Shown here in pieces: positions 43,002 to 51,893 of a DNA stretch of 64,000 nucleotides. Position 1 is the stretch's first letter. Each line of letters starts with the position of its first letter. The DNA comes from Ignavibacteriales bacterium (GTDB lineage Bacteria > Bacteroidota > Ignavibacteria > Ignavibacteriales > Ignavibacteriaceae). The notes beneath the pieces are model-generated. The model was not told where the DNA came from and searched no databases. It was given only the letters and a program-made list of their open reading frames with translations. The position numbers and the translations under genes are program-made. The stretch spans positions 1 through 64,000 of the forward strand of contig JAGUYG010000051.1 of NCBI GenBank assembly GCA_020061465.1. The letters run 5' to 3'.

Positions 43002-43799
43002 TCATTCGTGGCTTCCTGCTAATAGCAGAGCCTTTAATTTCCTAATCAATTCTAAAGTTTCATTGTATGAGCCGTTTTCGTTCATTAGAGATTTAATTAC
43101 AGCGCTGCCGACAATCACACCATCGCAGTATGGTTTGTATGATTCAACGTCGTCGGGAGTTGATATGCCGAATCCAACCAGCATTTTATTTTTAGAAATG
43201 TGAGTTCGCACTCTTTCCACAAACTCAATATTTGATTTCGCTTCTTTTCTCATACCGGTCGTACCGCTTACGCTGACGCAGTAAACAAACCCGCGGCTCT
43301 TTTCATCTATCAATTTTATTCTTTCATTCGGTGTAGTTGGTGTTACGAGCAATATTACATCCAAGCCGGAAAAATGATTTTCGAAAAAATTATCGTACTC
43401 TTCTATCGGAACATCTGGAATGATAACCCCTGCAGCACCCGAAGCTTTTGCTCTTTTCGCGAATCTTTCCATTCCAAAATTGAGCACCGGATTAGCATAA
43501 CCCATCATTATAACAGGTTTATCAGTTTGGTTTGAAATTTCTTTAACATAAATAAACACATCATCCAGCGTTACGCCATTTTCAATTGCGGCTTGCGACG
43601 ATTGTTGAATTATTGGACCATCAGCTAAAGGATCGCTGAATGGAAATCCGATTTCCAATAAATCAGCTCCGGCGTTTAGAACATCGAGTGCAAGTTTTGT
43701 GAATGATTGTTTGTCGGGAAAACCAGCAGTAAGAAAAATAGAGAGAACTTTTTCTCCGTTCCCGTTTTTATTTTTGATGTAATCTGAAGTAAGAGACAT
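43002..43799 (-). CDS. trpA: Tryptophan synthase alpha subunit
   Basis: The 265-residue TIM-barrel protein has LLEIGFPFSDPLADGPIIQ (catalytic Glu/Asp region), VIIPDVPIEEYD, LLVTPTTPNERI, VYCVSVSGTTG and VGFGISTPDDV. It cleaves indole-3-glycerol phosphate to indole and passes it to TrpB. It is the last gene of the trp operon, and is separated from trpB by a toxin-antitoxin pair. The stop of the toxin gene is 5 bases before its ATG. Confidence 0.96.
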   Translation of the reverse strand: MSLTSDYIKNKNGNGEKVLSIFLTAGFPDKQSFTKLALDVLNAGADLLEIGFPFSDPLADGPIIQQSSQAAIENGVTLDDVFIYVKEISNQTDKPVIMMGYANPVLNFGMERFAKRAKASGAAGVIIPDVPIEEYDNFFENHFSGLDVILLVTPTTPNERIKLIDEKSRGFVYCVSVSGTTGMRKEAKSNIEFVERVRTHISKNKMLVGFGISTPDDVESYKPYCDGVIVGSAVIKSLMNENGSYNETLELIRKLKALLLAGSHE

Positions 43800-43804
43800 A
43801 GTGG

Positions 43805-44263
43805 TTATATCTTGTCCTTGAGATTTAAAAATTGAGATATTTTGTCCAAGAATATTTTTAAATCAACCAAATTATTTTGAAGATAATCATAGAGAAGTTC
43901 TTCATTTATCTCCCAATAAATATGCACTAGCCTATTTCTAAATTTTGCCATAGAAATTAAGTTTTTTATAAAATCTTTATCGGACATTCCTTTTATATTA
44001 GAAAATGCTCCTTGTTCATGCAATACTTTGAACGTATCGCCAAAATTTTTGGGCATTCGGTAATTGTTTTTAGAAATTATGTGATTACAAATATCTATAG
44101 CTGATTCAATGGCAACTATAAAGTTGTATTTAGCACTATCAATTTTATCCAAATTCCCTAAAAAATCATCTCTTTTAATTGAGCGAAAAGAATTCAGGCG
44201 TTCAAACGCTTTCTTCATTTCAGAAATTAATGTTGCAATTTTGTCTTCATTATATCTTGGCAT
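43805..44263 (-). CDS. hepT: HEPN-domain toxin (HepT-like, DUF86)
   Basis: The 152-residue all-helical protein has the HEPN RNase motif R109-x4-H114 followed by Tyr116 (FRNRLVHIYW), the full Rx4HxY form in which the tyrosine is the site of AMPylation in known HepT/MntA pairs. Length is normal. It overlaps the MNT gene by 14 bases. The toxin looks intact. The pair lies between trpB and trpA on the operon's strand. Confidence 0.88.
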   Translation of the reverse strand: MPRYNEDKIATLISEMKKAFERLNSFRSIKRDDFLGNLDKIDSAKYNFIVAIESAIDICNHIISKNNYRMPKNFGDTFKVLHEQGAFSNIKGMSDKDFIKNLISMAKFRNRLVHIYWEINEELLYDYLQNNLVDLKIFLDKISQFLNLKDKI

Positions 44264-44699
44264 TTGAACTTTCCCTTAAATATTCATCTCTGATATAAAC
44301 AAAATCAAAATATTTTTTAAGTACCAATCCTTCAAAATCAACTCTTAACAATTCATCTCTATCAATTATAACAATTCCATCTTTAATAACATTATACTGA
44401 AAGGGTATTGGGGCATAATTAATTATCCTTACATCAAAATCAAAACTGAGAATATTTTCCAGCTCATGTTCTAATTCAAACTCTAAAGATGATGCTTCCT
44501 CGAACATACTTTTTGAAATATAGATTGCAATATCAATGTCTTTAAAGGTAGTATTTGAAGGGGTCTCTTGTACTTTTTCTCTGCTCATTTTGCCTGAATA
44601 AGATGATGTAAATGAACCGAAGATATAAGCAAAAATAACATATTCTTTAGCTTCGATGATGTTAATAATGTTTTTAATGATACTATATTTATCTTTCAT
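44250..44699 (-). CDS. mntA: MNT-type nucleotidyltransferase antitoxin (MntA-like)
   Basis: The 149-residue protein carries the minimal nucleotidyltransferase motif: GSF (Gly28-Ser29) and DID (Asp54, Asp56), with a third Asp in FDFDVRIIN near 89. In known systems this enzyme AMPylates the HEPN toxin and silences it. The spacing between GS and DxD is about 24 residues instead of the usual ~10 because of a polar insert (SGKMSREKVQETPSN). Its activity is therefore uncertain. It lies 59 bases after trpB. Confidence 0.85.
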   Translation of the reverse strand: MKDKYSIIKNIINIIEAKEYVIFAYIFGSFTSSYSGKMSREKVQETPSNTTFKDIDIAIYISKSMFEEASSLEFELEHELENILSFDFDVRIINYAPIPFQYNVIKDGIVIIDRDELLRVDFEGLVLKKYFDFVYIRDEYLRESSNAKI

Positions 44700-44758: not shown

Positions 44759-45955
44759 TTATAGTTCTAATTTTTCTCTTATCGTATTTAAATCCTTATC
44801 GCCTCTGCCGCTTACATTAACGATTACAATTTCATCCTTGCTCGTTCCGGGCAAAAGTTTTTCCAGATATGCAAAAGCATGTGCAGTCTCTAACGCAGGA
44901 ATTATTCCTTCCGTTTGAGAAATTAATTTTGTAGCTTCGATAGCTTCATCATCTGTAACCGAAAAGTAGTTTACAAGATTTTTATCTTTTAAATAACTGT
45001 GTTCCGGACCGACACCGGGATAATCCAATCCGGCAGAAATGGAATGAACTTCGGATACCTGTCCATCATTCTTTTGCAGCAAATAAGTTTTCATTCCGTG
45101 AAAAATACCTTCACGTCCTAATGTCAAACTTGCACAATGCTTATCAGTATCGATGCCGAATCCCGCTGCTTCAATTCCAATCAATTTAACATCATCATTT
45201 ATGAAAGGATAAAATATACCGATAGCATTGCCGCCGCCTACACATGCAACAATGTAGTTGGGCTTTCTGCCTTCTGCTTTTACGATCTGTTCTTTAGTTT
45301 CGATGCCAATGACAGATTGAAAATCCCTAACTATCATTGGATATGGATGAGGTCCGACAACCGATCCTATTATGTAATGAGTCGTTGAACAATTAGTAAC
45401 CCAATCACGGATAGCTTCATTAGTTGCATCCTTCAGAGTTCTGCTTCCTGATTTAACGGGAATAACTTCCGCTCCTAATAATTGCATACGAAATACATTT
45501 AAGCTTTGCCGTCCCATATCAACCTCGCCCATATAAACAGCGCACTCCATTCCGAATTTTGCACATGCAGTTGCTGCTGCAACTCCATGCTGTCCTGCAC
45601 CGGTTTCGGCAATTATCCTTTTCTTACCCAATTTTTGTGCGAGCAGTATTTGCCCTAACGCATTGTTTATTTTGTGTGCACCCGTGTGGCAAAGATCTTC
45701 GCGCTTCAAATATATTTTTGCCCTGTTAAAATATTTAGTAAGGTTTTCTGCAAACGTTAACGGTGTCGGTCGTCCGCTGTACTCGTGGTGAAGAGAATTC
45801 AACTCGGCAATAAAATCCGGATCGTCTCTCAACTTTAAATAAGTTGATTCAAGTTCCAGCAGAGGAGTAATCAAAGTTTCCGGTACATAGCGTCCGCCGT
45901 ACTTGCCGTACTTGCCTCTTTCATCGGGTAAATTGTATTTAGTTTTGCTCGGCAT
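44759..45955 (-). CDS. trpB: Tryptophan synthase beta subunit
   Basis: From the ATG at 45955 the protein has 398 residues and starts with the usual [23 protein letters not shown]; an upstream ATG (45988) lies deeper in aroF and is unlikely. Key sites: PLP lysine in [28 protein letters not shown] (catalytic Glu region) and CVGGGNAIG phosphate loop. It joins indole and serine to tryptophan. It overlaps the end of aroF by 17 bases. Confidence 0.96.
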
Positions 45956-46973
45956 AAAAATTAACCTTTTTATCAACGATAGGCGCAAGCTGTTCTACTT
46001 TATTCAGCAGTTGTTTGAAATTTTTTGGTGTCAGCGACTGAAAACCGTCTGATAACGCATTCTCCGGATGGTTGTGCACTTCGATAATTAATCCATCAGC
46101 GCCGCAGGCAATGGCTGCCATAGCCATTGGAGTTACTTTATCCCAAATTCCAATTCCGTGCGAAGGATCCACAAAGATTGGCAAATGAGAATGTTTCTTT
46201 ATAACAGGAACAGCATTCAAGTCGAGCGTATTTCGCGTGTGTGTTTCGAATGTACGAATGCCTCTTTCGCACAATATCACGTTGTAATTTCCTTGCGAGA
46301 GAATGTATTCGGCACTCATCAATAAGTCTTCGATAGTTGCCGCTAATCCTCTTTTGAGTAGAACAGGATTCGGTAATTCTCCGACAGCTTCGAGCAGGGA
46401 AAAATTTTGCATATTGCGCGCGCCAACTTGAATAATATCGGCTATTTCCGAAATCATTGGGAGTGTTTGAGTATCCTTCGCCTCGGTAACAATGCTCATT
46501 CCCAATTCTTTCTTTACGTCAGCTAAGTATTCTAAGCCTTTCTCTTTCAAGCCTTGAAATGCGTACGGACTTGTTCTCGGTTTATAAGCGCCGGCTCTTA
46601 AAAATTTAATTCCCATTTCCTTCAACTCGCCGGCAATGTCAAATATTTGCTGGCGGCTTTCGACTGAACAAGGACCGGCAATAATAGCAATTTCATTTCC
46701 GCCAAACGTTGAACCGTTAAGATTAATAACAGTATCTTCCGTTTTCATCTCGCGGCTAACAAGCTTATATGGCTTGGAAACGCGGTATACATCTTCCACT
46801 GAACTCATTAATAAAAATTCACCTTCGGTAAGCTGGGTGGTTTGTCCTGTCACACCTATCGCCATCTTTTCTGAACCGATTATAGTGTGAGGCTTACATC
46901 CTTTTGAAAGAATTTTTTCTTTCACCTTTTGGATGTCTTCTTCGGGTGCATTTAACTTCATCATGATTACCAT
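45939..46973 (-). CDS. aroF: 3-deoxy-7-phosphoheptulonate synthase (type I-beta, with ferredoxin-like N-domain)
   Basis: 344 residues. The N-terminal ~70 residues ([21 protein letters not shown]) form the ferredoxin-like regulatory domain of DAHP synthases like that of Thermotoga. The barrel has [43 protein letters not shown] and [11 protein letters not shown]. It makes the first intermediate of the shikimate pathway. It sits between trpF and trpB with overlaps on both sides, so its expression is tied to trp control. Confidence 0.94.
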
Positions 46974-49664: not shown

Positions 49665-50227
49665 AGCTTTAACCAATTTTTTATTATGTTCTTGCCTTCT
49701 GCTGTTAAAATTGATTCCGGGTGAAATTGAATACCCTCAACGGGAAATTTCTTATGTCGTACTCCCATAATTATTCCATCTTTTGTTTCTGCACTTATCT
49801 CTAGAGTTTGCGGCAATGTTTCCTTCTCTACAATTAGCGAATGATATCGTGTTGCCTCAAACTCATTCGGAACATTTTTGAATATTGTCTTTCCGTCATG
49901 CATTATTATAGATTTTTTACCGTGCATTAATATCGGCGCTTTTGTGATTTTTCCGCCGTAAACAATTCCTATGGCTTGATGACCTAAACACACGCCAAGA
50001 ATCGGTATCCTATCGCCAAAATTTTTTATTGCCGTAAGCGTTACGTTAGAATCTTCGGGCTTTCCGGGTCCGGGCGATATTAAAATTTTATCGGGATTCA
50101 TTTCTTCAATATCGTTCCCGTCAATTTCATCGTTTCTTTTGATAATCAGATCGCTTTTATATTTACCCAATAATTGAACAAGGTTATATGTGAATGAATC
50201 GTAATTGTCAATTACTAATATCTTCAT
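49661..50227 (-). CDS. trpG: Anthranilate synthase glutamine amidotransferase subunit
   Basis: The 188-residue class I amidotransferase has ILVIDNYDSFTYNLVQLLG, ISPGPGKPEDS, ILGVCLGHQAIG (catalytic Cys) and VEGIQFHPES (His/Glu). It gives ammonia to TrpE. It overlaps trpE by 20 bases. Confidence 0.95.
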   Translation of the reverse strand: MKILVIDNYDSFTYNLVQLLGKYKSDLIIKRNDEIDGNDIEEMNPDKILISPGPGKPEDSNVTLTAIKNFGDRIPILGVCLGHQAIGIVYGGKITKAPILMHGKKSIIMHDGKTIFKNVPNEFEATRYHSLIVEKETLPQTLEISAETKDGIIMGVRHKKFPVEGIQFHPESILTAEGKNIIKNWLKL

Positions 50228-51683
50228 CTATTACCTCGGCATATTTTAAAGCATTAACTAATACAGCAGATTTATTTTTAATTTCTTTAGCCTCCAATTC
50301 CGGTTTGCTGTCAGCAACTATGCCCGCACCGGCTTGCCAGTAAACAACATTACCTTTAGCAAATAAAGTTCTTATAGCTATACACATATCAAGGTTGCCT
50401 GAAAAATCAAAGTAACCCACTGCACCTGCATATACATTTCTTTCTTCCGGTTCATATTCGTTGATAAGTTGAATTGCGCGAATCTTCGGAGCGCCTGTAA
50501 CTGTTCCGGCAGGGAAGCATGACATCAATGCATCAATTGAATTTTTATTGTCTGCGAGTTCGCCTTCTACTTTGGAAACGATGTGCATTACGTGAGAGTA
50601 CCGTTGAATTTTCATTTGTTCGGATACTACAACCGAGCCATACTTGCAAACTCTTCCTAAATCGTTTCTTCCTAAATCGACAAGCATTGTATGTTCGGCT
50701 AATTCTTTTGGATCGTTCAATAGGTTTTTTTCGAGTTCGATATCTTCTTCAATTGTTTTTCCCCTGCGGCGTGTTCCGGCAATCGGCAGAACCTGTGCCC
50801 GGCGATTTTTTACTTTTAACAGATCTTCGGGTGAAGTTCCGATGATGGTAAAATCCTTTTCGAATTCAAGATAATACATGTAGGGTGAAGGATTAATTAT
50901 TCGCAGCGCACGGTAGATGTTAAGCAGGTCGCCTTTGTATTCGGAGGAGAATCTTTTTGACAGAACAATTTGAAAGATGTCCCCCTCAATTATGTTGTGT
51001 TTACTTTTATTCACCTGTTCGTAAAATTCTTCGGTATCGAAGTCACTAACTACCTTGCCGTTATTTTTAAAATCGCTGCTGTACTCAACTTGTTTTTTAA
51101 GAGATTTTTTTAAGTCCGCTATTTTTTCTTTAGCGAGATAGTAAGATTGTCTTAGGTCGGTTTTTCCGTCTATAATAGAATTTGAAATTAAAATGATTTG
51201 ATGTTTATAATGGTCGAAAGCCAGGATGGTGTCATAAATTCCGAAGATTGAATCTGGATTGTCAAAAGAAGCAGTGCTGAACTTGATTACTTTTTCAATC
51301 AGAGCAACATTTTCATAACCTAAGTAACCTACAATTCCGCCGGTAAAATCCGGTAAGTTTTCCAATTTCGGCTGCTGGTATTTTTGAATCTCACTGCGAA
51401 TATATTCAAATATTGACTTATTTATCACAGACTTACCTTCTTCAGTCTGTTCAGTTATTATACTGCCCTTATTGTAAAAGATTTTTCTTGGTCCCTTCCC
51501 GATAAAGGAATAACGCGCCATGCTCGCAGATCCCTCCACAGATTCCAGTAAGAAGCTTTGCGAGCCATTCTCCCGGATTTTTAGATAAGCTAAAACAGGC
51601 GTTAGTAAATCCGCCGTTATAACCTCGTAAACCGGAATGAGGTTAAACGATTCAGCCAATTCTTGATATTTATCGAAAGTCAT
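50208..51683 (-). CDS. trpE: Anthranilate synthase component I
   Basis: The 491-residue chorismate-utilising enzyme has the feedback-type N-terminal motif LLESVEGSASMARYSFIG (tryptophan-binding ESx region), ending catalytic blocks IFQIVLSKRFSSE, PSPYMYYLEF, PIAGTRRRGKT, ELAEHTMLVDLGRNDLGRV and CFPAGTVTGAPK. It makes anthranilate from chorismate with TrpG. It is the first structural gene behind the leader peptide and attenuator. Confidence 0.96.
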   Translation of the reverse strand: MTFDKYQELAESFNLIPVYEVITADLLTPVLAYLKIRENGSQSFLLESVEGSASMARYSFIGKGPRKIFYNKGSIITEQTEEGKSVINKSIFEYIRSEIQKYQQPKLENLPDFTGGIVGYLGYENVALIEKVIKFSTASFDNPDSIFGIYDTILAFDHYKHQIILISNSIIDGKTDLRQSYYLAKEKIADLKKSLKKQVEYSSDFKNNGKVVSDFDTEEFYEQVNKSKHNIIEGDIFQIVLSKRFSSEYKGDLLNIYRALRIINPSPYMYYLEFEKDFTIIGTSPEDLLKVKNRRAQVLPIAGTRRRGKTIEEDIELEKNLLNDPKELAEHTMLVDLGRNDLGRVCKYGSVVVSEQMKIQRYSHVMHIVSKVEGELADNKNSIDALMSCFPAGTVTGAPKIRAIQLINEYEPEERNVYAGAVGYFDFSGNLDMCIAIRTLFAKGNVVYWQAGAGIVADSKPELEAKEIKNKSAVLVNALKYAEVIDEDISN

Positions 51684-51700
51684 TATTTTACCTTTAAACG

Positions 51701-51736
51701 AAAAAACCCTTCCCAGTTATCTGAGAAGGGTTTTTT
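51701..51736 (-). terminator. trp attenuator terminator
   Basis: Read on the minus strand, AACCCTTCTCAG and CTGGGAAGGGTT pair (one G-T) around a short ATAA loop, followed by six T. It lies between the leader peptide stop and trpE. Its left arm (TTCTCAGA, 51720-51727) can alternatively pair with TTTGAGAA (51748-51755) directly after the leader stop codon. Confidence 0.85.
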
Positions 51737-51756
51737 AATAAAATATTTTCTCAAAA

Positions 51757-51852
51757 TCACCGGGTCATACTATAAGGCACACTAAACCACCACCAGAAGT
51801 ACTGGCTAAAAAATAAGTTTGTGTTATAATATGTTCCGGTAAACTTTTTCAT
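51757..51852 (-). CDS. trpL: trp leader peptide with Trp-Trp-Trp
   Basis: A 31-codon frame from ATG 51852 to TGA 51757 encodes MKKFTGTYYN...SQYFWWWFSVPYSMTR. Three successive TGG codons lie at 51787-51795. It is followed by the attenuator terminator and then trpE. When charged Trp-tRNA is scarce the ribosome would stall on the WWW codons and leave TTTGAGAA free to break the terminator. When it reaches the stop it would cover that segment and let the terminator form. The promoter ends about 11 bases before the ATG, so there is almost no 5' leader and no ribosome binding site. Confidence 0.85.
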   Translation of the reverse strand: MKKFTGTYYNTNLFFSQYFWWWFSVPYSMTR

Positions 51853-51863
51853 ATCGTGTGGTG

Positions 51864-51893
51864 CAAATATACATTTCTTTTTTTATTTGTCAA
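51864..51893 (-). promoter_or_regulatory. trp operon promoter
   Basis: On the minus strand, TTGACA (51888-51893) and TATATTTG (51864-51871) give TTG-N19-TAnnTTTG, a complete match to the Bacteroidota promoter pattern. A start about 6 bases past the element puts the leader-peptide ATG almost at the 5' end of the mRNA. Confidence 0.75.

What the first reader, a model, noticed from the sequence alone, without database searches (positions are those of the whole stretch)
51701..51893. Complete ribosome-controlled trp attenuator with a WWW leader peptide, nearly leaderless
The minus strand shows, in order, a TTG-N19-TATATTTG promoter, an ATG about 11 bases after it, a 31-codon peptide with three adjacent Trp codons, its stop, and then a terminator with six T before trpE. 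TTTGAGAA just after the leader stop can pair with TTCTCAGA in the left arm of the terminator, the expected antiterminator. Such attenuation is best known from proteobacteria; here it appears in an Ignavibacteria-like genome and the leader peptide has essentially no 5' UTR or ribosome site.
Basis: partly seen in the sequence, partly recalled or inferred. Interest (0 to 1): 0.65.

Follow-up and report, generated by a model that had tools for sequence, protein, structure and literature searches.

The report
Near-leaderless tryptophan attenuator before trpE
A short tryptophan-rich reading frame just after the promoter lets a moving ribosome decide whether the tryptophan genes are transcribed; the same arrangement sits in front of trpE in most of the Bacteroidota genomes checked (apparently not in the green sulfur bacteria), and the frame has almost no room or signal for normal ribosome loading.

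Summary
The minus strand carries a Bacteroidota-type promoter (TTG-N19-TATATTTG), an ATG 11 nt later, a 31-codon frame with three adjacent Trp codons, and an intrinsic terminator before the trp operon. All 46 Ignavibacteria-type trpE genes found in other genomes have a Trp-containing leader frame and a terminator. A third helix pairs the first codons with the last codons. All three helices show compensatory change; one subclade changed strands 2, 3 and 4 together. No Shine-Dalgarno-like motif precedes the leader in 47/47 cases, and the promoter box lies at most 13 nt upstream in 46/47. The arrangement also precedes trpE in 23 of 26 Bacteroidia-type genomes picked without prior knowledge and in many Rhodothermia-like ones, but not in Chlorobium-like genomes. 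The same genome has matching His and Thr leaders, and no TrpR or TRAP. This is classical ribosome-mediated attenuation in a phylum for which I found no report in the library searched (a 2010 survey I could not read may cover it). Transcription start and response to tryptophan remain untested.

The parts
51891..51893 (-). -33 promoter element TTG(AC)
   Evidence: Sequence; TTGAC at 22-24 nt before the -7 box, 4 or 5 of 5 bases matching in 44 of 47 leaders
51864..51871 (-). -7 promoter element TATATTTG (Bacteroidota consensus TAnnTTTG)
   Evidence: 5 or 6 of 6 fixed bases in 43 of 47 leaders, box-to-ATG distance 13 nt or less in 46 of 47; combined score 10 or more in 38/47 vs 0.4% of shuffles
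51757..51852 (-). Leader peptide frame, 31 codons, MKKFTGTYYNTNLFFSQYFWWWFSVPYSMTR, stop TGA
   Evidence: no Pfam or NCBIfam model matches
51787..51795 (-). Three adjacent Trp codons (20-22), the proposed stall site
   Evidence: Trp clusters at the same place in relatives; first Trp at median codon 17 in Ignavibacteria
51824..51842 (-). Strand 1 (TTACCGG and CATATTATAA, leader codons 4-10)
   Evidence: MFE fold; 16 compensatory cells, 0 of 500 shuffles as many
51748..51775 (-). Strand 2: TTATAGTATG and CCCGGT pair with strand 1; CCCGGTgattTTGAGAA pairs with strand 3
51712..51727 (-). Strand 3: TTCTCAgataACTGGG, antiterminator partner (left arm, loop and start of right arm of the terminator)
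   Evidence: 2:3 duplex -20.3 kcal/mol, 0 of 500 shuffles; pair counts
51701..51736 (-). Intrinsic terminator hairpin (3:4) with six T
   Evidence: 100% of cells paired, 10 compensatory cells, 0 of 500 shuffles; a terminator follows the leader in 47 of 47
50208..51683 (-). trpE, anthranilate synthase component I; first gene of the controlled operon
   Evidence: Pfam PF04715 + PF00425
43002..50227 (-). Rest of the presumed operon: trpG, trpD, trpC, trpF, DAHP synthase, trpB, a HepT/MntA-like pair, trpA
   Evidence: ORFs and Pfam matches; trpA (43002-43799) assigned from its sequence, not by a family search; co-transcription not tested

Best explanation
This is a ribosome-mediated transcription attenuator of the trp operon. 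RNA polymerase starts a few bases before the leader ATG (inferred) and a ribosome loads on the 5' end without a Shine-Dalgarno site (inferred from sequence). With enough Trp-tRNA the ribosome reaches the stop codon, where its footprint covers strand 2 (CCCGGUGAUUUUGAGAA); the 3:4 hairpin then forms and transcription ends before trpE. When Trp-tRNA is scarce the ribosome halts on codons 20-22, strand 2 stays free, pairs with strand 3 as it emerges, and polymerase passes into trpE. Without translation the 1:2 helix ties up strand 2 and the terminator forms. Shown here: the elements, their conservation and their covariation. Inferred: the start site, translation, stalling and the response to tryptophan.
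For: A Trp-containing leader frame plus terminator before trpE in all 46 Ignavibacteria-type loci from other genomes. WW frames in 45 of 47 upstream regions vs 1.0% of shuffles, WWW in 36 of 47 vs 0.02%. Alternative helices: 2:3 better than 95% of shuffles in 38 of 47, 1:2 in 27 of 47, the two sharing at least 4 nt of strand 2 in 44 of 47. Compensatory change in 3:4, 1:2 and 2:3; in L030/L035/L041 strands 2, 3 and 4 change together (TGAGA/TCTCA/TGGGA to TGTAA/TTGCA/TGTAA). Geometry: strand 2 starts a median 22 nt after the last Trp codon and spans a median -6 to +12 around the stop, so a stalled ribosome leaves it free and a terminating one covers it. Nascent-strand folding: downstream of a stalled ribosome 2:3 forms until strand 4 is nearly complete; with a ribosome at the stop only 3:4 forms. 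The upstream gene is divergent, so the terminator serves no other transcript. No TrpR or TRAP in the genome, with working controls.
Against: No expression data. In plain equilibrium folding of the whole leader, strand 1 pairs with strand 2 around a stalled ribosome and the terminator still forms; relief therefore needs the stalled (or a queued) ribosome to block the 1:2 helix, which is assumed. Once strand 4 is complete the terminator outcompetes the antiterminator, so the outcome must be kinetic. The covariation of the 2:3 helix is modest (4 cells, 5 of 500 shuffles), and two of its columns are unpaired in 6 of 19 aligned rows, partly through misalignment.
Confidence: 0.92

Rival explanations
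1. The terminator is read by a protein or RNA sensor (TRAP, TrpR, T-box), and the Trp-rich frame is incidental.
For: Other bacteria control trp that way; the two Bacilli loci that came up with the same query (L047, L049) carry T-box-like leaders (by eye).
Against: No TRAP or TrpR gene in the genome, with controls ringing; no Rfam family at its gathering score in the window; Trp codons kept in 47 of 47 leaders while the rest of the peptide varies.
Confidence: 0.03
2. The leader acts in trans: the short peptide or the terminated leader RNA is the main functional product, as described for peTrpL and rnTrpL of Sinorhizobium (PMC7298713), and attenuation is secondary.
For: The terminated leader would be a small near-leaderless mRNA, as in Sinorhizobium.
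Against: Outside the Trp codons and the paired segments the peptide is poorly conserved, so no conserved trans function is visible; the conserved segments are explained by RNA helices.
Confidence: 0.03
3. Translational control: stalling changes the folding near the trpE start rather than transcription termination.
For: Some trpE starts have a Shine-Dalgarno-like motif (22 of 47) that could be hidden or exposed.
Against: All 47 leaders have a hairpin followed by a T run before trpE; no conserved helix over the trpE start was seen by eye in the printed leaders.
Confidence: 0.02

Closest known systems
Escherichia coli trp operon attenuator (trpL; Rfam Trp_leader RF00513)
   Same: Leader frame with adjacent Trp codons, alternative 1:2, 2:3 and 3:4 helices, intrinsic terminator before trpE.
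   Different: No Shine-Dalgarno-like motif and a predicted 5' UTR of about 7 nt; 31 codons instead of 14 (recalled); Trp codons lie in the loop between strands 1 and 2 instead of at strand 1 (recalled for E. coli); no match to the Rfam model; no TrpR in the genome.
Sinorhizobium meliloti trpL/rnTrpL
   Same: Trp leader frame that begins at or next to the transcript's 5' end, attenuation without transcription repression (PMC7298713).
   Different: Unrelated peptide and RNA sequence, different phylum; the Sinorhizobium 5' end is mapped, this one is predicted.
Actinobacterial trp attenuators (Corynebacterium, Streptomyces)
   Same: Leader peptides with double or triple Trp codons and terminators before trp operons (PMC1262725).
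   Different: Different phylum and sequence; no near-leaderless layout is described in the passages read.
Histidine leader peptides before hisS in Bacilli
   Same: Leader-peptide attenuation outside Proteobacteria and Actinobacteria (PMC2965389).
   Different: Different amino acid, gene and phylum. That 2010 paper states that to its authors' knowledge no leader-peptide system was then known outside Proteobacteria and Actinobacteria, ermC apart.

Membership tests
Ribosome-mediated (leader peptide) trp attenuators | Short frame with tandem Trp codons between the promoter and trpE | tested here: met
Ribosome-mediated (leader peptide) trp attenuators | Intrinsic terminator between leader frame and first structural gene | tested here: met
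Ribosome-mediated (leader peptide) trp attenuators | Antiterminator mutually exclusive with the terminator | tested here: met
   joint change of strands 2, 3 and 4 in L030/L035/L041
Ribosome-mediated (leader peptide) trp attenuators | Ribosome at the stop codon covers strand 2, ribosome at Trp codons does not | tested here: met
   Position statistics and folds, (footprint of 13 nt downstream assumed)
Ribosome-mediated (leader peptide) trp attenuators | Stalling at Trp codons prevents the 1:2 helix | tested here: inconclusive
   Strand 1 lies upstream of the stalled footprint (codons 4-10); equilibrium folding allows 1:2 around the ribosome
Ribosome-mediated (leader peptide) trp attenuators | trpE expression rises when charged tRNA-Trp falls | not testable with these tools
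   Needs an experiment
Rfam Trp_leader (RF00513) | Covariance model match at gathering score | tested here: not met
   No match at gathering score in the window; not among matches at E of 5 or less
T-box riboswitch | Rfam T-box match upstream of trpE | tested here: not met
   Searches list none
TRAP-dependent attenuator | TRAP (PF02081) encoded in the genome | tested here: not met
   the control (Bacillus subtilis) rings
Leaderless trpL of the Sinorhizobium kind | Transcript starts at the leader ATG | tested here: inconclusive
   Promoter spacing predicts a 5' UTR of about 7 nt here and 0-9 nt in nearly all relatives (start assumed 4 nt after the box); not mapped

The most novel reading that the evidence does not exclude
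Near-leaderless, Shine-Dalgarno-independent leader frames are an old, phylum-wide way of controlling amino acid operons in Bacteroidota (trp in most lineages, also his and thr here). In Ignavibacteria a modified form has a 1:2 helix that flanks the Trp codons, so that relief depends on the stalled ribosome, or a second ribosome queued behind it over codons 5-15, acting as a plug.
Probability: 0.3. Interest if true: 0.65.

Novelty: new member of a known kind. Interest (0 to 1): 0.5.

Why it matters
Leader-peptide attenuation is a textbook mechanism known mainly from Proteobacteria and Actinobacteria. Here it appears as the common control of trpE over much of the phylum Bacteroidota, in a setting where the leader frame has no Shine-Dalgarno site and starts almost at the 5' end of the RNA. 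That gives a natural test of how ribosomes load quickly enough to keep pace with RNA polymerase without Shine-Dalgarno pairing, and whether transcription and translation are coupled in this phylum. It also supplies a simple signature (TAnnTTTG, then ATG within 13 nt, then a run of one amino acid's codons, then a terminator) for finding amino acid attenuators in Bacteroidota.

Tried and rejected
A phylum-wide pattern scan for TTTG-N-ATG-N-TGGTGGTGG was too noisy to count with; it only pointed to candidates that were then checked next to trpE. Rfam at a loose threshold gave a weak His_leader match (29.6 bits, gathering 49), which is below the cut-off and probably reflects the general leader-plus-terminator shape. 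A first attempt to forbid pairing across the ribosome in folding gave empty structures because of a wrong constraint; it was replaced by folding only the RNA downstream of the ribosome. A first pass over Bacteroidia loci missed minus-strand cases because of orientation and was redone. Literature searches for leader-peptide attenuation in Bacteroidota, Flavobacterium or Bacteroides found nothing relevant; the 2010 survey of Lopatovskaya and others (cited in PMC4833913) is not held and may contain Bacteroidetes predictions.

Full report
Observation. TTTGAGAA (51755-51748) pairs fully with TTCTCAGA (51727-51720). The leader folds far better than shuffles (z -5.6). In shuffles of the upstream 400 nt a WWW frame never appears (0 of 5000), and among 48 ORFs of 150 aa or more in the window only trpE has a WW short frame upstream. 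The neighbour upstream is divergent, so the terminator can only act on the trp transcript.

Close relatives. A scan of genome contigs with TrpE gave 46 Ignavibacteria-type loci plus two Bacilli with T-box-like leaders. Forty-four of the 46 have a leader frame with adjacent Trp codons; the other two have WAWFW (L033) and two separated Trp codons (L018). All 47, the window included, have a hairpin plus T run after the leader. The expected frequency of a WW frame in shuffles is 1.0% per region.

Structure. The antiterminator is longer than first proposed: CCCGGTgattTTGAGAA (strand 2, across the stop codon) pairs with TTCTCAgataACTGGG (strand 3: left arm, loop and start of the right arm of the terminator). 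A further helix pairs codons 4-10 (TTACCGG, CATATTATAA) with codons 26-31 (TTATAGTATG, CCCGGT). Both use the same strand 2 in 44 of 47 leaders; 2:3 beats 95% of shuffles in 38 of 47 and 1:2 in 27 of 47. On an alignment of 19 window-type leaders the terminator has 10 compensatory cells and no broken pair, the 1:2 helix 16 compensatory cells, and the 2:3 helix 4 (5 of 500 shuffles reach it). In L030, L035 and L041 strands 2, 3 and 4 changed together (TGAGA/TCTCA/TGGGA to TGTAA/TTGCA/TGTAA), which is what two competing helices sharing strand 3 require. In some other Ignavibacteria (L023, L037, L039, L040, L051) strand 2 lies after the stop codon instead of in the frame, yet still pairs with strand 3.

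How it works. Strand 2 begins a median 22 nt after the last Trp codon and spans about -6 to +12 around the stop. A ribosome halted at Trp therefore leaves it free, and one at the stop covers it. Folding only the RNA downstream of a stalled ribosome gives the antiterminator until strand 4 is nearly complete; with the ribosome at the stop only the terminator forms. These are equilibrium folds of growing strands, not a kinetic simulation. One point is open: strand 1 lies upstream of the stalled ribosome, and if pairing around the ribosome were allowed the 1:2 helix would still form. Either the bulk of the ribosome prevents this, or a second ribosome queued over codons 5-15 covers strand 1; a first Trp at codon 17-20 leaves room for about one such ribosome. 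This second idea is inference.

Near-leaderless start. TAnnTTTG and TTGAC at 22-24 nt spacing stand before the leader ATG in Ignavibacteria (score 10 or more of 11 in 38 of 47 against 0.4% of shuffles), with 13 nt or less between box and ATG in 46 of 47. With the usual start about 4 nt after the box (recalled for Bacteroidota promoters), the 5' UTR is about 7 nt here. A Shine-Dalgarno-like motif precedes the leader in 0 of 47 and trpE in 22 of 47. Leaderless trp leader frames have a precedent in Sinorhizobium (PMC7298713).

Spread in the phylum. Regions upstream of trpE were taken from genomes across the phylum. Trp-rich leaders occur in 20 of 20 genomes of the window's family and order, in 27 of 52 regions from other orders and classes, and in 23 of 26 Bacteroidia-type genomes picked without prior knowledge, plus 4 picked because of a WWW hit. 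Examples are MKIRNANISTWWWPNA, MRHVAYHSAHYFGWWWFSTAAVGRARA and MKRNNLNNTNWWWHFKILDVA. Terminators and 2:3 pairings for 33 of these are (17 of 33 at p of 0.05 or less against shuffles). Leaders are absent in families f26, f39 and f24; the contig length of G106 is that of Chlorobium tepidum as I recall it, so these look like green sulfur bacteria. In these other lineages the first Trp is at median codon 11, against 17 in Ignavibacteria, and the 1:2 helix is rarer (7 of 33 against 28 of 47). Whether the phylum-wide pattern is ancestral or repeated was not tested by a tree.

Other leaders in the same genome. Before hisG lies MKRQILNIEIHHHHLSDFYAGR with a terminator, and before the fused aspartokinase-homoserine dehydrogenase lies MSTTIYKYNLSCGMSGTTTTTPTGMDGG with a terminator. 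No TrpR (PF01371) or TRAP (PF02081) was found, with controls ringing.

Known or new. The mechanism is classical leader-peptide attenuation. No Rfam, Pfam or NCBIfam model covers the leader. The held literature describes such attenuators in Proteobacteria, Actinobacteria (PMC1262725) and, for hisS, Bacilli (PMC2965389); I found no report for Bacteroidota, but a 2010 survey that could hold predictions is not in the library. I therefore file it as a new member of a known kind, with a wide and, as far as I could read, unreported spread.

Noticed in passing
L168:561-629 (G000 contig C120, before hisG): His leader frame MKRQILNIEIHHHHLSDFYAGR followed by a terminator: a second amino acid attenuator in the same genome.
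   Followed up: partly
L167 minus strand, offset 5923 (G000 contig C2, before a fused aspartokinase-homoserine dehydrogenase): Thr leader frame MSTTIYKYNLSCGMSGTTTTTPTGMDGG followed by a terminator with a long T run.
   Followed up: partly
43805-44699, minus strand: A HepT-like RNase (PF01934) and a nucleotidyltransferase (PF18765), resembling a HepT/MntA toxin-antitoxin pair, sit between trpB and trpA inside the attenuated trp operon.
   Followed up: partly
45939-46973, minus strand: A DAHP synthase gene lies inside the trp operon between trpF and trpB, so the attenuator may also set flow into the shared aromatic pathway.
   Followed up: no
L103-L106, L108-L113, L117-L120, L147-L153 (families f4, f8, f10, f21, f24, f26, f28, f39): Some lineages of the phylum, green sulfur bacteria apparently among them, have trpE without any Trp-rich leader; how they control trp was not examined.
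   Followed up: no
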